Part shown: positions 7,510 to 63,723 of the stretch, in pieces | Layout of the letters: every line of letters begins with the position of its first letter | Numbering within the stretch: the stretch's first letter is position 1 | NCBI GenBank assembly: GCA_029959195.1 | Contig: CP114122.1 | Location: 1,302,001-1,366,000 of the forward strand | Source of the DNA: Dictyophora rubrovolvata | Lineage: Eukaryota; Basidiomycota; Agaricomycetes; Phallales; Phallaceae | Direction of reading: 5' to 3' | Length of the DNA stretch: 64,000 bases | The notes under the pieces: model-generated | Told to the model about the DNA's origin: nothing | Databases searched by the model: none | What the model saw: only the letters and a program-made list of their open reading frames with translations | Position numbers and translations under genes: made by a program

Positions 7510-8711
7510 TTACTCCTCCAACGTCAATAGATCAGCCATGGTAGGGGTCAACTAAAAAAATCCATCATCCATGAGAAAAGACAATTTCAGGAAGAGAAAG
7601 GCTTACCCATTCACAAATGAGCGCGACGATCTCGCATAATAAGATGTCAGAGTCCATGAGGACGTTTCTCTCAAAGCAACGTATTGCTGACTCGTAATAA
7701 GTTGGCGTCCCATCCTCCAGCTTCACAATAAAGAAAATCCATTTCTGCCCTTCAGATAGACAGAAACGGACCTCAGGAAGGCTAGAAGGGGTTGCTCAGA
7801 GACGTACCTGGCGGACTTCAGCAATGCAATCGCCTGGCTGACGGTCTCAGGGATATACGAGACCAAGCTTGATTCAAAGTTTTGTCGCTTGGCTTCAACC
7901 AGGAATAGGTGACCCCTTGCGATCTTGAATATATTCTCGCTTGATTGGCCAGGGGTAAGCAAGCGGGCTGAGACGGTTGTTAAGTAATTCGCTGGGCGAA
8001 GGTGTTGGTAGTCTGACTCACTCTTGTTATCCAGCACGTCTTCGTACTCAATAATTGTGTAGTCGACGCTGCCACTCAACCACAGTTCACATCCGGTGAC
8101 AGGGTGAGTAATTGAGGCCCCATCTCCTTGAACGATCTTCATCTCCGGGAAAATGACGACGCCTCGCTGGTCGTCGGAGAGCATCTCTGCTAGGGTGAGC
8201 AGCATTGCGTCGAAAATCATTCTTGAGCCCGCCTCATACTACGAGCAAGTATTCATTTAGATGACCGAGTGCAAAAGTGATAAATGAAAGACGCACATCC
8301 ATGCTGACATGCTTATATATTTTCTTGACCCTAGAATGAAGTTCCGTGATTTCCGCTTTTGCATCCATCGGCATCCCTTCCGCTATTTGAGTCACTTTTG
8401 CCGAGTCAAAATAAAGAGATTTCCTTTTGACCCCAGCCTTTTCAAGGTCTCCTGATGTGACGATTGATGAAGTCTCTCTCTGAAGCATAGTTAATAATAG
8501 TACATCACGCGAGAACTATGAAACATACTGATTTGTTGGCACTCTTTACCATGGTTTCCAGAATGACGACGTGGTCTAAAGCAGTCTGCAATTCTTTCCC
8601 TGTTCCTTTGATTTCACCCAACTCTTCCTTGAGGGCCTCAATACTATTCAGCATCTTTGATAGGTCACCAATAGAGTCCTGGAGACTGCGCTTGTGACCG
8701 CGTTCAGACAT
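7510..8711 (-). CDS. Uncharacterised protein with PD-(D/E)XK-like signature, copy A of an inverted pair
   Basis: Five-exon layout matching copy B (9567-10800). Exon 1 (from ATG 8711) encodes a helical, probably coiled-coil N-terminus (SLQDSIGDLSKMLNSIEALK...). Exon 2 begins RETSSIVTSGDLEKAG. Exon 3 (YEAGSRMIFDAMLLTLAEML) holds ELWLSGSVDYTIIEYED and, about 60 residues on, HLFLVEAKRQ. The spaced D ... E-x-K pattern resembles the active site of PD-(D/E)XK nucleases; that is inference, and the family is unknown to me by name. Exon 4 encodes LPEVRFCLSEGQKWIFFIVK and the last exon ends LLTLEE. The intron between exons 3 and 4 (around 7783-7808) is only about 26 nt, versus 50 nt in copy B. That is below the normal minimum, and reading through it truncates the protein. 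Copy A may therefore be decaying. Confidence 0.6.
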
Positions 8712-9566: not shown

Positions 9567-10800
9567 ATGTCCACTGAACAAAAACCCAGTCACAAGCGCA
9601 AGCGCAGTCTCCAGGACTCTATTGGTGACCTATCAAAGATGCTGAATAGTATTGAGGCCCTCAAGGAAGAGTTGGGTGAAATCAAAGGAACAGGGAAAGA
9701 ATTGCAGACTGCTTTAGACCACGTCGTCATTCTGGAAACCATGGTAAAGAGTGCCAACAAATCAGTATGTTTCATAGTTCTCGCGTGATGTACTATTATT
9801 AACTATGCTTCAGAGAGAGACTTCATCAATCGTCACATCAGGAGACCTTGAGAAGGCTGGGATCAGAACGAAATGTCTTTATTTTGACTCGGAAAAAGTG
9901 ACCCAATTAGTGGAGGGGATGACGATGGATGCAAAAGCGGAAATCGTGGATCTTCATTCCAAGATCAAGAAGATATATAAGCATCTTAACATGAATGTGT
10001 GTCTTTCATTTTATCACCTTTGCGCTCGGTCATCTAAATGAATACTTGCTCGTAGCATGAAGTAGGTTCAAGAATGATTCTTGATGCAATACTGCTCGCG
10101 TTGGCAGAGATTATGTCAGACGAACAGAGAGGTGTTGTCATTCTTCCGGCGATGAGGATTGCTCGAGGGGATGGGGTTTCAATCACTCACCCCGTCTCAG
10201 GATATGAACTGTGGTTGAGTGGCAGCGTTGACTATGCCATTCTTGAGTACGAAAACGTGCTGGATAACAAGAGTGAGTCAAACTACCAACACCTTCGCCC
10301 CACGAATTACTTAACAACCGTCTCAGTCCGCTTGCTCACCCCTGGTGTATTGAATGAAGATATATTCAAGATCACAAGGGGTTGCCTATTCCTAGTTGAA
10401 GACAACCGTCGGGATTCCTTACAAAGCTTAGTCTCCTTTATCCCTAAGGCCGTTAGTCAGGCGATTGCATTGCTGAAGTCCGCCAGGTACGTTAACACTG
10501 CCCGCTAGACCTCTTCATCTGAGCAACCCCTTCTAGCCTTCCAGAGGTCCGTTTTTGTCTATCTGATGGGCAGAGATGGATTTTCTTTATTGTGAAGCTG
10601 GAGGATGGGACGCCAATTTGCTATGATTCAGCAATGCGTTGTTTTGTCCTCGAGGACTCTGACATATCATTACGCGAGATTGTGGGGCTCCTTTGTGAAT
10701 GGGTAAGCCTTTCTCTTCCTGAAATTGTCATTTCCCATGGATGATGGATTTTTTTTAGGTGAAGCCCACCATGACTGGTCTGTTTGAGTTAGAGGAGTAG
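9567..10800 (+). CDS. Uncharacterised protein with PD-(D/E)XK-like signature, copy B of an inverted pair
   Basis: Paralogue of copy A in divergent orientation, about 345 residues in five exons. Exon 1 starts MSTEQKPSHKRKRSLQDS. The intron-1 acceptor leads into RETSSIVTSGDLEKAG. Exon 3 starts HEVGSRMILDAILLALAEIM and contains LWLSGSVDYAILEYEN. A normal 50-nt intron leads to LPEVRFCLSDGQRWIFFIVK, and the last exon reads VKPTMTGLFELEE-stop. The frame is intact throughout. The segment matching copy A's LVEAKRQ reads LVEDNRR here, so the putative E-x-K is lost and a nuclease activity of this copy is doubtful. Exon 1, intron 1 and the start of exon 2 are identical in DNA to copy A, while later exons differ at many sites. 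Function and location are unknown. Confidence 0.7.
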
Positions 10801-59424: not shown

Positions 59425-59613
59425 TTTTTCTTTCCTGCGTTGGAATAAATTGTCGGATGCTTGCAAACCCATCTGTTTATGCGCATTTTTATTTTTATAA
59501 TGAATCCTACGATTATACATGTATCAACGATTAACTTATAACGCTTGTAATGAAGTTACTTATGTACTCACGATTACTATCAGGAATATCCTGGGACACA
59601 TTCATATGACTTA

Positions 59614-59837
59614 CAGCGCTTTTCAAAAGCTAAGGCGGGTCGGCTAAGAAATTTCCCACCTGAGAACGAGGATTTCTCAAGCACTATGTAAGATAATTGC
59701 CTACTTTTTATTGCAATGGAATTGTATAACTTTTATCTAGCACTTGCCCATATTTTTTGGGAGTTAATTGTGTTGAGTGTCTTAAAAAATCCAATATTTC
59801 AAAAACAGTCACCCGCCTTAGCTTTCAAAAAGCGCTG
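59614..59837. mobile_element. MITE with 27-bp terminal inverted repeats and TA target duplication
   Basis: Ends read CAGCGCTTTT(CA/TG)AAAG followed by CTAAGGCGGGT on both strands: 27 bp with two mismatches. It is flanked on each side by TA (59612-59613 and 59838-59839). The 224-bp length and TA duplication fit a Tc1/mariner-type non-autonomous element. No coding sequence. Confidence 0.85.
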
Positions 59838-60933
59838 TAATAACACCGATACACAGACTTCACATAAAACCTTGGATATAATATAAGTTGATTTGAGCCG
59901 TAAAGACGAGGTGTTCAGTTGATCTTGCTGCTATGTCCTCGCACGGGAACATGCGTCGGGGCGAACGTCAGACTCTTCGAATCTTATTCCTCGTTTTCTT
60001 CGGCAGTGTGAATTAACGCTATAGCCATAATTACATGCGCCTGAAAAGGTCTTCAGCTGAATCAGCCGATTGTGTGGTTATTGTGGCAACTGCACTTTAT
60101 TTCTTTTACGAACGCCTATCAAAATAAACCCAGAAGAATTTGCACCAAATCTGCAGTTTTACAATCTTGTTTGGATTAACACATAGATGTTCCTCCTATT
60201 GTATTCTTTAATATAAATATATTATGTCTTCAGTGTTTTCAATTGCGGTTTTCCATATATCTCTGGCTGTGTTTAAATATATATCAATGACTCGGATGGT
60301 CCCCGTCAGGAACGAACAAGGGAGAGTACTGGTAAACCTGGCATTAAGTAAAATATTTCATATGCGGGCGTCGCCGAGTCTCGTCGCTCCATTGATTGAC
60401 GTATCAGACTATTCCATAGAGGGTAAGCAGACGACAGTAGTGACATGTATGCGCTCAGACTGGATCGCTGTCGCTTTTTGAATTCTCATTTCTTGAAAAA
60501 AAAAGTAGTATGCGAAGTTTCCCCTGAATTCGAACTAAAATCCAAATACTCGTCTCAAGCAAGTTGTGCGGTACCTGCGAGAACCATTATCGGAGCTGAA
60601 AGACATAAACTGCAAAAACAGCTTATAATTCAAATTTCTTGACGGCTTGAGAACAGTTGTATTTCGCTTGGACCTGAACTTTGAAGTCATCTGATGTAAG
60701 ACACAGGACGCTGACAATTAATCGACGGGTGCATGAGCGGTTTACTTGACATCAGTGACTGTTGGGAAACCCGGCCTATCATTTTAGTCATGGCTTGCAC
60801 GTCTAGCTAATTCATATAAAAAACAGCGCACAGTGGCTTGTTCTTCACGTACCTGCGTGCCGAGTAGACAGCCTATTCAACTTTCGCCTGTTATGCCAAA
60901 CAGCTCATCATTAGGTACACACAGTCAGTGATG

Positions 60934-60940
60934 TATTTAA
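60934..60940 (+). promoter_or_regulatory. TATA-like box, secreted Cys-rich gene 1
   Basis: TATTTAA about 63 bp before the ATG at 60997, at the same place as TATATAA in the second copy. Confidence 0.5.
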
Positions 60941-60996
60941 AGAATTTGAACGTGCCCTACCATTTGTTTCATCGTAGTCTCTCAAAGAAAGTCAGC

Positions 60997-61552
60997 ATGA
61001 AGTCCTTTACATTCCTCGTGTTAGGAACTCTTTTTTCAGTAGTAATCGCGAACCCATTGGTGATAGGACCAATCTGCCACATCGTCTGTCCGGAAGAGGA
61101 AGGACTCACTATATGTCCTTCCAGCACTGGATCAACATGTAGCTGTTGTCCGAGTCGTACGTTCCTTTAAATCACATTGAAGAATAAGAACCACTCAAGA
61201 TCATATTTCTAAAGCTATTGCAACCTTAACACTGAGCGTTCTTCCGGAACCCACCGTAATTTGTGAAATTGCCTGCGTTCTTCCCTCGGTTTTTTGTCCA
61301 CCTTGCGGTTGCTGCGGTAAGCACTAAATCACAAGCCCCTGAACCTGTGTATTTACTCACCGATATATTTAGAACCCAGCGGCACTGTAAAGTTACCGAT
61401 TGCTACTCGTACAGGAATTATCTGCGATATTGAATGCCCTCTCGATGAAGAGAGTTCTTGCTGTGGTAAGACATCCTTTAGCTATTTTTGAATCTGAAAG
61501 TTGACACGACATTTCAGGTGGACCAATTGTTGCCACACCGTTGGCAGATTAA
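60997..61552 (+). CDS. Small secreted cysteine-rich repeat protein, copy 1
   Basis: About 128 residues in four exons, all introns in phase 1. Exon 1: signal peptide MKSFTFLVLGTLFSVVIANP, then PICHIVCPEEEGLTIC and CSCC. Exon 2: PTVICEIACVLPSVFCPPCG and CC. Exon 3: TGIICDIECPLDEESSCCG. Exon 4: GGPIVATPLAD-stop (61550-61552). Each of the first three exons carries one unit of the form C-x-I/L-x-C ... C-x-CC or CC. Unit 3 is shortened and lacks two cysteines found in copy 2. No known family recognised. Secretion is inferred from the signal peptide; the role (wall protein, effector or other) is unknown. Confidence 0.75.
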
Positions 61553-62026
61553 AACGGAAAGTTTGAGCTTTGGATTCAAAATCCATTTCGACATCTTGGG
61601 AACGGCGTAAGATCAATGGCTAATAGGGCATAGGATAGTCTTTGAAAAAAAACAGCTTATAATTCAAATTGTTTGACAGCTTGAGAACAGTTATATCTCG
61701 TTTGGACCTGAATTTTGAAGTCATCTGATGTAAGACACAGCCTGAGGAGGACCGCTGACAATAATCGACGGGTTTACTCGACATCAGAGACTGTTGGAGA
61801 CGCGGCCTATCATTTTACCATGAGTCAGGGCTTGCACGTCTAGTTAATTCATATAAGAGAACGGCGCACAATAGCTTGCTCTTCGCGTACCTGGTAGACA
61901 GCCTATTCAACTATCGCTTGTTATGCCAAACAGCTCATCATGAGGTACACCGTCAGTGATGTATATAAAGAACTTAAACGTGTCCTACCATTTTTCATTC
62001 AACATACTCTCTCAAAGAAAGTCAGC
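61553..62026. other. Intergenic between the tandem Cys-rich genes
   Basis: 474 bp containing the 3' flank of unit 1, the duplication junction (about 61645) and the upstream region of copy 2, with a TATA box at 61962-61968. Confidence 0.6.
61962..61968 (+). promoter_or_regulatory. TATA box, secreted Cys-rich gene 2
   Basis: TATATAA 65 bp before the ATG at 62027, conserved in position with copy 1. Confidence 0.6.
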
Positions 62027-62605
62027 ATGAAGTCCTTTGCATTCCTCGCACTAGGAACTCTCTTCTCAATAGTAATTGCAAACCCATTGGTGACGAGTCC
62101 AATCTGCGACATCGTCTGTCCGGAAGGTGAAGGACTCGCTATATGCGCTGATTCCACTGAATCAACCTGTAGTTGCTGTCGTACGTTCAGTTAGATAAAA
62201 ATATAAGAATCGCTCACGATTATATCCCTAAAGCTATTGGAATCGTGTCGCCTGTGAGCCTTACTCCGGAACCCACCTCGACGGAGCCCCCCATAACCTG
62301 TGATCTTGCCTGTGCTCTTCCATTGGTTCTTTGTGCACCTTGCAATTGCTGCCGTACGTATTGAGCAGAGTGCTCCTCTGTCTAAGTGCTCACCGTCATA
62401 TTTAGAACCTAGTGGAACTATAACGCTACCGATCGTTACTCCTACAGGAATTATCTGCGACATTGCATGCCCCCTCGATGAAGAGATATGTGAACCTTGT
62501 TCTTGCTGTGGTGAGACATCATTCCCTTTAACGATTCTTGCATCTAGAAATTGACACGACATTTCAGGCGGTGGACCAATTGTGGTCACACCGGTGGCAG
62601 AATAG
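62027..62605 (+). CDS. Small secreted cysteine-rich repeat protein, copy 2
   Basis: Paralogue of copy 1, about 143 residues, same four-exon, phase-1 architecture. Exon 1: MKSFAFLALGTLFSIVIANP, PICDIVCPEGEGLAIC, CSCC. Exon 2: PPITCDLACALPLVLCAPCN and CC. Exon 3: TGIICDIACPLDEEICEPCS and CCG. Exon 4: GGGPIVVTPVAE-stop (62603-62605). Here all three units are full: C-D-x-x-C, a spacer, then C..C-x-CC. Introns are near 62180-62232, 62355-62402 and 62512-62568. Cysteines dominate the mature part, so disulfide-rich folding is expected. A long minus-strand frame over this gene is its shadow. Confidence 0.78.
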
Positions 62606-63723
62606 AACAGAAAAGTTTGAGCTTTGGATTTAAAATCCTGAATCATTTCGACATTTTGAAAACAGCGTAAAGCTATTGAATGGCTGGTACATAAAATAGT
62701 CTTGAACAACAATGTCTCAAAATACAGCTTTCTTTCTTTCCAAAAGTACATGCTCACCATCTCAGACATCCGATGGAATCTGAACCTCAGGCTCGTTGTG
62801 AACGAAAAAAATAATTCCCGAGAAATAGAAACGCACCGGTGTGGATCTGTAGGATCTTGTATCAAGTGGATATTATGCATTAGTTAGCTCCGCAACCGTG
62901 ACCATAAACAAGCACCGAGTACATTTTGAAACCGATCAGAGTGCATATATATTGCACCGGTGTCTTAATACGGTCCCCTTATACCGCAGTCCTGCAGGGG
63001 TTAACGTTCAAAGTTCAGCAACCGGAACAGGGAAGTTATAATAGAACCAGGGTTCTAAAGATCTTTGCGCAAAAGTCCGAGTACCGCTATAGTAGCCCCA
63101 CTGCTCAGGCTGCGTGAAATCATTGTTTTCTTTTTATATGACTCGGAGTAATACTGTGTCGACTGGAACGGTCAATAGTGTGTACAACTGGCATAAAATC
63201 ACTGACCCTTTTCCCCTTAGTGGGGAAATGACCACTTTGTAAATTTAGACAAGTGCAAATAGTCACCGTAGATCTCATGATAGTGCCCGAAGTCGCGACC
63301 CTAACACGAAGGGAATAAATCGTAATTTACGGCCTTTGTCAATGCCAAATGGAGCCTCACTAGCTCGGTAATATTTACCTGCACCAAATTTCCCCGTCGG
63401 GTGTTCGTTTGAGATCGAGTTCATGGATCATTGAAGTTAAAACAGAAGTCGGAATTTACTGTGGCAATAAACAACAAGTCTCTTTGAGGACTACTAAAGT
63501 GAGTGTATGATGATTTTGTAATCGTACACTATATGAATACAAGACACGGTAAAAAATTTTTTTGATGTAAGTTGGTTTCTCCGGGAGTTTATCCAAACGA
63601 GGAAGCTAGCCAGAAAAGAGTGTTGATCATAAGCTACTATGGGCCACACGACGTGGCTTTCGGCAAAACATAAAAATAACAATGATGGGAGAAAATGGTT
63701 ACTTCTGTTCATACAAATCACAA
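62606..63723. other. Intergenic
   Basis: 1.1 kb with no recognised gene or repeat beyond the 3' flank of the tandem duplication (to about 62706). Confidence 0.5.

What the first reader, a model, noticed from the sequence alone, without database searches (positions are those of the whole stretch)
60997..62605. Secreted cysteine-rich proteins built of one repeat unit per exon
In both genes each of three exons encodes one unit with a C-(D/H/E)-(I/L)-x-C start and a C..C-x-CC end, and all introns between units are phase 1. Same-phase boundaries let units be added, lost or swapped without frameshift. This is the exon-shuffling design of animal extracellular proteins and is uncommon in fungi. The tandem duplication of the whole gene adds a second level of expansion. 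I know of no described family with this arrangement.
Basis: partly seen in the sequence, partly recalled or inferred. Interest (0 to 1): 0.78.

Follow-up and report, generated by a model that had tools for sequence, protein, structure and literature searches.

The report
Fungal cysteine-rich exon-repeat gene pair
Two neighbouring fungal genes appear to encode small secreted proteins in which each of three exons carries one similar cysteine-rich unit, a gene layout best known from animal extracellular proteins; what the protein does is not known.

Summary
At 60997-61552 and 62027-62605 lie two head-to-tail copies of a gene for a small, acidic, probably secreted cysteine-rich protein (129 and 138 aa). 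Each has FOUR exons and three introns, all phase 1 in the best model. Exons 1-3 each carry one unit; exon 4 is a short tail. The C..C-x-CC end is present in 5 of 6 units. Coding is supported by exon indels (4 of 4 multiples of three; introns 1 of 4, flanks 2 of 12) and dN/dS 0.50 (0.29-0.87). Weak point: intron 1, whose AAAG acceptor scores poorly. No Pfam family matches at E<=10, no bacterial or archaeal relative was found, and own-genome protein searches show only these two genes. The evidence fits old exon duplication inside one gene; shuffling of a module among genes is not shown. Most likely a lineage-specific disulfide-rich extracellular protein of a basidiomycete with hydrophobin and class II peroxidase matches. 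Function is inferred only; other fungi could not be searched.

The parts
60997..61156 (+). Gene 1 exon 1: signal peptide (MKSFTFLVLGTLFSVVIA, cleavage assumed after residue 18) + unit 1 (6 Cys)
   Evidence: translation and phase; hydropathy of residues 3-18 mean 2.21
61157..61214 (+). Gene 1 intron 1, phase 1, GTACGT...TAAAG, 58 nt; weakest intron
   Evidence: enumeration of frame-keeping GT-AG pairs; site scores
61215..61316 (+). Gene 1 exon 2: linker + unit 2 (6 Cys)
61317..61372 (+). Gene 1 intron 2, phase 1, GTAAGC...TTTAG, 56 nt
61373..61465 (+). Gene 1 exon 3: linker + unit 3 with 4 Cys (third and fourth Cys absent, exon 12 nt shorter than in gene 2)
61466..61517 (+). Gene 1 intron 3, phase 1, GTAAGA...TTCAG, 52 nt
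61518..61552 (+). Gene 1 exon 4: tail GPIVATPLAD and stop, resembling the start of another linker
   Evidence: resemblance by eye
62027..62180 (+). Gene 2 exon 1: signal peptide + unit 1 (6 Cys)
62181..62233 (+). Gene 2 intron 1, phase 1, GTACGT...TAAAG, 53 nt
62234..62353 (+). Gene 2 exon 2: linker + unit 2 (6 Cys)
62354..62405 (+). Gene 2 intron 2, phase 1, GTACGT...TTTAG, 52 nt
62406..62510 (+). Gene 2 exon 3: linker + unit 3 (6 Cys)
62511..62567 (+). Gene 2 intron 3, phase 1, GTGAGA...TTCAG, 57 nt
62568..62605 (+). Gene 2 exon 4: tail GGPIVVTPVAE and stop
60614..61647 (+). First copy of the tandem duplication unit, including about 380 bp of conserved upstream DNA (322 of 383 aligned upstream bases identical)
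61648..62701 (+). Second copy of the tandem duplication unit (right end approximate)

Best explanation
A tandem pair of lineage-specific genes for a small secreted protein made of three small disulfide-rich units joined by Pro/Thr/Val-rich linkers. The units arose by old duplication of an exon inside one gene, the phase-1 introns keeping the frame; a later tandem duplication copied the whole gene with its upstream region. How it most likely works (inferred): the signal peptide sends it out of the cell, six cysteines per unit close three disulfides, and the string of compact acidic knots acts in several copies at the cell surface or in the extracellular matrix, as a structural or binding protein. 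Shown from sequence: reading frame, constraint between the copies, tandem duplication, unit repetition. Inferred: splicing, secretion, disulfides, place of action, order of duplications.
For: Frame-keeping phase-1 models in both copies. Exon indels 4 of 4 multiples of three. dN/dS 0.50, bootstrap 0.29-0.87; 16 of 17 aligned positions holding a Cys in either copy hold it in both, against 59 of 93 identities at the other mature positions. Hydrophobic N-terminus (mean hydropathy 2.2), 14-15% Cys, pI 4.05, no dibasic sites; the gene 2 mature part has no K, R, H, F, W or Y. The two cysteines missing in gene 1 unit 3 are absent together, leaving an even number, as expected of disulfides. The donor lies one base after the last CC codon in 5 of 6 unit exons, and two codons plus one base after it in the sixth.
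Against: No transcript evidence. Intron 1 scores poorly: totals 0.1-3.5 in gene 1 and 1.7-4.9 in gene 2 over four trainings, the 95th percentile of decoys being 4.0-4.7 in the three trainings. A CAAG acceptor present in gene 1 only scores above AAAG there in two of the four trainings and close below in a third. Gene 1 intron 2 also falls below the decoy 95th percentile in two of the three trainings (4.1 against 4.5, 4.5 against 4.7). Unit 1-unit 2 similarity hardly exceeds the cysteine scaffold. Exon 2 alone has dN/dS 1.4 and exon 4 1.3 on few changes, so constraint there is not shown. The unit fold was predicted with low confidence (pLDDT 72.8, pTM 0.32). Wall or matrix location rests on composition alone.
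Confidence: 0.5

Rival explanations
1. A secreted effector-like or defence protein acting on another organism (host, competitor, grazer), diversifying after duplication.
For: Small, probably secreted, Cys-rich, tandemly duplicated, no known family; exon 2 changes fast (19 nonsynonymous against 5 synonymous differences).
Against: Strongly acidic, unlike typical cationic antimicrobial peptides (general knowledge); whole-gene dN/dS 0.50. Hydrophobin and class II peroxidase-extension matches in the genome fit a decaying mushroom (recalled) and say nothing of a host.
Confidence: 0.25
2. An extracellular metal-binding, metallothionein-like protein.
For: 14-15% Cys, C-x-C-C motifs, no aromatic residue or His in gene 2, acidic.
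Against: The signal peptide leads into an oxidising compartment; cysteines are spaced and even in number per unit, and two are absent together in one unit; no Pfam match at E<=10.
Confidence: 0.1
3. Introns were inserted independently at the same proto-splice site of an intronless repeat, so the one-unit-per-exon layout is secondary and the introns played no part in making the repeats.
For: Introns of one gene show no clear similarity (10 to 189 of 200 shuffles reach the score). A basidiomycete gene family gained introns quickly, with no significant phase bias (28 of 64 phase 1; PMC3584928, passages seen).
Against: Three parallel insertions at the equivalent site are needed; old exon duplication explains position and phase at once, and intron sequence decays fast: even between the two gene copies intron 1 keeps 40 of 53 and intron 2 34 of 52 aligned bases.
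Confidence: 0.25
4. The gene model is wrong: intron 1 is not removed, or is removed elsewhere, so the main product has one unit; or the loci are decaying pseudogenes.
For: Weak intron 1 acceptor. Retaining intron 1, 2 or 3 gives a stop 3-14 residues after a unit's CC in 6 of 6 cases, so shorter products made of complete units are possible.
Against: Exons 2 and 3 keep frame in both copies and nearly all cysteines; no frameshift or internal stop in either spliced model.
Confidence: 0.15

Closest known systems
Animal class 1-1 extracellular modules (exon shuffling as reviewed in PMC8001218, passages seen)
   Same: One Cys-rich unit per exon, phase 1 at both ends, protein with a signal peptide.
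   Different: Unit not found in another gene of this genome; fungus; no shuffling between proteins shown; the first unit shares its exon with the signal peptide.
Fungal small secreted cysteine-rich proteins (SSPs/SSCPs), as a class
   Same: Size, signal peptide, cysteine content, no known domain, tandem duplication.
   Different: Repeated six-cysteine unit with one exon per unit; no Pfam match.
Fungal IGY-motif SSP family (PMC4367982, passages seen)
   Same: Small secreted family with conserved exon structure in Dikarya.
   Different: Two conserved cysteines and a motif split over two exons; no unit per exon described in the passages seen.
Hydrophobins
   Same: Small secreted Cys-rich fungal proteins; hydrophobin matches occur in this genome.
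   Different: Eight cysteines in the order C-CC-C-C-CC-C (recalled) against a repeated C-C-C-C-CC; no Pfam match.
Metallothioneins
   Same: C-x-C-C motifs and lack of aromatic residues (resemblance recalled).
   Different: Signal peptide; even-numbered, spaced cysteines; no match.

Membership tests
Class 1-1 exon module (animal type) | Exon boundaries coincide with unit boundaries and both flanking introns are phase 1 | tested here: met
   Exons 2 and 3 of both gene models; prediction only, intron 1 acceptor uncertain
Class 1-1 exon module (animal type) | Module occurs in different proteins or architectures (mobility) | tested here: not met
   Own genome returns only the two window genes at E<=10 (loose first look, short exons can be missed); other fungi not searchable
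Class 1-1 exon module (animal type) | Unit number varies among homologues | tested here: inconclusive
   Three units in both copies; only two homologues available
Hydrophobin (PF01185) | Pfam profile match and eight-cysteine order C-CC-C-C-CC-C (order recalled) | tested here: not met
   0 families at E<=10; cysteine order differs
Metallothionein | Pfam profile match | tested here: not met
Metallothionein | Metal bound by free thiols | not testable with these tools
   needs purified protein
Kex2-processed repeat precursor (fungal RiPP or KEP type) | Repeats separated by dibasic cleavage sites (recalled) | tested here: not met
   no KR, RR, KK or RK in either protein
CBM1, CFEM, LysM or another Pfam secreted domain | Pfam profile match | tested here: not met
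   0 families at E<=10 for both proteins
Small secreted cysteine-rich protein (loose class) | Under 300 aa, N-terminal hydrophobic signal, Cys-rich | tested here: met
   129 and 138 aa, hydropathy 2.2, 14-15% Cys; no signal-peptide program was run

The most novel reading that the evidence does not exclude
A fungal instance of the animal-style class 1-1 design: a six-cysteine extracellular module whose copies multiplied by exon duplication through phase-1 introns, in a lineage where such assembly is held not to occur. Each intron, if kept, ends the protein just after a complete unit, so one gene could give one-, two- and three-unit products.
Probability: 0.3. Interest if true: 0.6.

Novelty: new variant of a known kind. 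Interest (0 to 1): 0.42.

Why it matters
If transcripts confirm the model, this is a compact case for asking whether intron-mediated duplication of extracellular modules happens in intron-rich fungi, a process that a review treats as restricted to animals (PMC8001218, passages seen). One family with two members and equal unit numbers cannot settle that; orthologues with other unit numbers would.

Tried and rejected
Phase-2 splicing of intron 1 (61161-61236 and 62185-62258): keeps frame in both copies, but scores badly in all four trainings (totals -7.1 to -0.9). Rejected.

More paralogues: a donor-linked motif (CxCC + N + GTRNGT) gave 11 places in the genome against 16 for the reversed control. 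Of the 11, only the two in gene 2 have C-(D/E/H)-(I/L)-x-C upstream (read by eye). The motif catches only 2 of the 6 known unit exons, so this is a weak test. A DNA search with the whole finding returned only itself; protein searches returned only the two genes.

Relatives elsewhere: genome contigs (bacteria and archaea) gave 42 pattern stretches, none confirmed. PDB sequences: two chance-like hits, E 0.072 and 6.8. Of the family libraries I ran Pfam alone. Viral contigs were not scanned. No fungal collection was available.

The first dN/dS run used a poor exon-2 alignment; one search used exon-by-exon alignments that I placed by hand, and replaces it (0.49 and 0.50 overall). One search timed out with no output.

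Unit fold: AlphaFold2 on six unit sequences gave a low-confidence beta-rich model; I ran no fold search on it, since a low-confidence model gives meaningless matches. The whole spliced protein was not folded.

Full report
WHAT IS THERE. The window is part of contig C6 of a 28.24 Mb, 11-contig genome. The genome gives 26 exon-level matches to the hydrophobin profile and 14 to Peroxidase_ext, PF11895 (recalled as the extension of fungal class II peroxidases); the window holds a 1,3-beta-glucan synthase ORF. From this I infer a basidiomycete of the mushroom class; the species is unknown to me. At 60997-61552 and 62027-62605 lie two head-to-tail copies of one gene. Each is modelled with four exons and three GT-AG introns of 52-58 nt, all phase 1. 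The predicted proteins have 129 and 138 residues, a hydrophobic N-terminus (mean hydropathy 2.2), and mature parts (cleavage assumed after residue 18) with 16 cysteines of 111 residues and 18 of 120, pI 4.05, 2 and 0 Lys+Arg, 1 and 0 aromatic residues (F, W, Y).

THE UNITS. Exons 1-3 each hold one unit beginning C-(D/H/E)-(I/L)-x-C (6 of 6) and ending in CC (6 of 6), preceded by C-x in 5 of 6. Gene 1 exon 3 is 12 nt shorter and lacks the third and fourth cysteines, so that unit has four; the joint absence keeps the number even. The donor sits one base after the last CC codon in 5 of 6 exons and two codons plus one base after it in gene 1 exon 1. Exon 4 is a tail (GPIVATPLAD and GGPIVVTPVAE) that by eye resembles the start of another linker. 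With cysteines held in place, 1000 shuffles reach the observed score for u1-u2, u1-u3 and u2-u3 in 333, 29 and 51 cases (gene 1), 36, 1 and 13 (gene 2); cross-gene pairs give 603 and 452, 13 and 15, 2 and 35. Units 1 and 3, and 2 and 3, are thus likely true relatives; 1 and 2 by way of 3. At DNA level exons of one gene are at shuffle level in 4 of 6 comparisons, borderline in G2E2-G2E3 (5 of 200) and above 200 shuffles in G2E1-G2E3 (11 bases); introns of one gene are reached by 10 to 189 of 200 shuffles. Any exon duplication is old.

IS IT CODING, AND IS IT SPLICED SO? The two copies differ by indels that are multiples of three in 4 of 4 exon cases, 1 of 4 intron cases (a 3-nt gap at the acceptor of intron 3, which belongs with the extra Gly of gene 2 exon 4) and 2 of 12 flank cases, a few of the latter at the edges of the duplication. 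dN/dS by exon-wise alignment is 0.50 (bootstrap 0.29-0.87; 0.85% of 2000 resamples at or above 1); per exon 0.34, 1.41, 0.19 and 1.28 on small counts. Of 17 aligned positions with a cysteine in either copy, 16 have it in both; of 93 other mature positions 59 are identical. I listed the frame-keeping GT-AG pairs for introns 1 and 2 and scored the model and alternatives with splice-site matrices trained on 260.5 kb of the same genome without the finding. The training is thin and partly circular: 70-1453 ORF-junction groups, 18-86 confident introns, a branch-site model set by hand. Introns 2 and 3 score 4.1-9.1 over the four trainings; gene 1 intron 2 falls below the decoy 95th percentile in two of them. 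Intron 1 scores 0.1-3.5 in gene 1 and 1.7-4.9 in gene 2, because its acceptor is AAAG; within only gene 2 in the loosest training passes the decoy 95th percentile there (4.9 against 4.7). The phase-2 alternative shared by both copies scores -7.1 to -0.9. A CAAG acceptor present in gene 1 only is also phase 1 and beats AAAG in two of four trainings. So phase 1 for intron 1 is preferred, not proven. Among confident introns phases 0/1/2 were 12/3/3 of 18, 18/8/6 of 32, 32/18/15 of 65 and 35/24/27 of 86. Three phase-1 introns in one gene would then arise by chance in roughly 0.5-2% of three-intron genes (hand arithmetic from these fractions): unusual, not astonishing.

DUPLICATION. Repeat copies are about 1,020-1,060 bp apart. 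Aligned identity: upstream 322 of 383, exons 126/154, 79/102, 81/93, 30/35, introns 40/53, 34/52, 44/52, downstream 80/107. The upstream DNA is as well kept as the exons, which suggests retained regulation or some gene conversion. By eye, an A-rich ACAGCTT stretch stands at both copy starts and near the right end of the second copy, a possible seed for unequal exchange.

RELATIVES. No Pfam family at E<=10 for either protein. Own genome at E<=10, searched with the gene 2 protein and a 65-residue part of it: only these two genes (the tool's first look is loose and short exons can be missed). Bacterial and archaeal genomes: none. PDB sequences: no credible hit. Nine full-text searches (listings only, save passages read in PMC4367982, PMC8001218 and PMC3584928) showed no such family.

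HOW IT MOST LIKELY WORKS. Export by the signal peptide; three disulfides per six-cysteine unit; a chain of three compact acidic knots on Pro/Thr/Val-rich linkers, acting in several copies outside the cell, most likely at the wall or matrix. Only anatomy and constraint are shown; the rest is inference. The AlphaFold2 model of one unit (six-row alignment) is beta-rich but of low confidence. Rivals: effector-like role, metallothionein-like role, independent intron insertion (possible, since a basidiomycete gene family gained introns fast; PMC3584928 passages), or a wrong gene model. If any of the introns is kept, translation stops 3-14 residues after a unit's CC (6 of 6 cases), so shorter products of whole units could exist; with stops common in introns this may be chance.

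COMPARISON. The layout works like an animal class 1-1 module gene, but the mobility test is not met with what could be searched, and the unit-number test is inconclusive with two homologues. A review treats exon shuffling as restricted to Metazoa (PMC8001218 passages). The IGY family shares conserved exon structure (PMC4367982 passages). I file it as a new variant within fungal small secreted cysteine-rich proteins. Interest is moderate: a neat, testable oddity that needs transcripts and orthologues.

Noticed in passing
window 59611-59840: A 230-bp element with 30-nt terminal inverted repeats (93% complementary), MITE-like; 20 long matches at 89-100% identity including this one, plus one split copy on C10 (22 of 49 match rows; the other 27 rows are the arms), so probably recently active; it lies about 1.2 kb upstream of gene 1.
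   Followed up: partly
window 7723-8238 (-) and 10056-10508 (+): Two similar ORFs (171 and 150 aa) of an unknown protein in opposite orientation, a second local duplication by eye; the first has no Pfam match at E<=0.001, the second was not scanned.
   Followed up: no
window 60614, 61648 and about 62730: An A-rich ACAGCTT stretch at both copy starts and near the right end of copy 2, a possible seed for the unequal exchange that made the tandem (by eye).
   Followed up: no
window 61157-61214, 61317-61372, 61466-61517 and the gene 2 introns: Retention of any of the six introns gives a stop 3-14 residues after a complete unit, so products with whole units only would result.
   Followed up: partly
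window 60614-60996 and 61648-62026: Upstream DNA of the two copies is 84% identical (322 of 383 aligned bases) with blocks of 89-94%, as well kept as the exons; conserved regulation or gene conversion.
   Followed up: no
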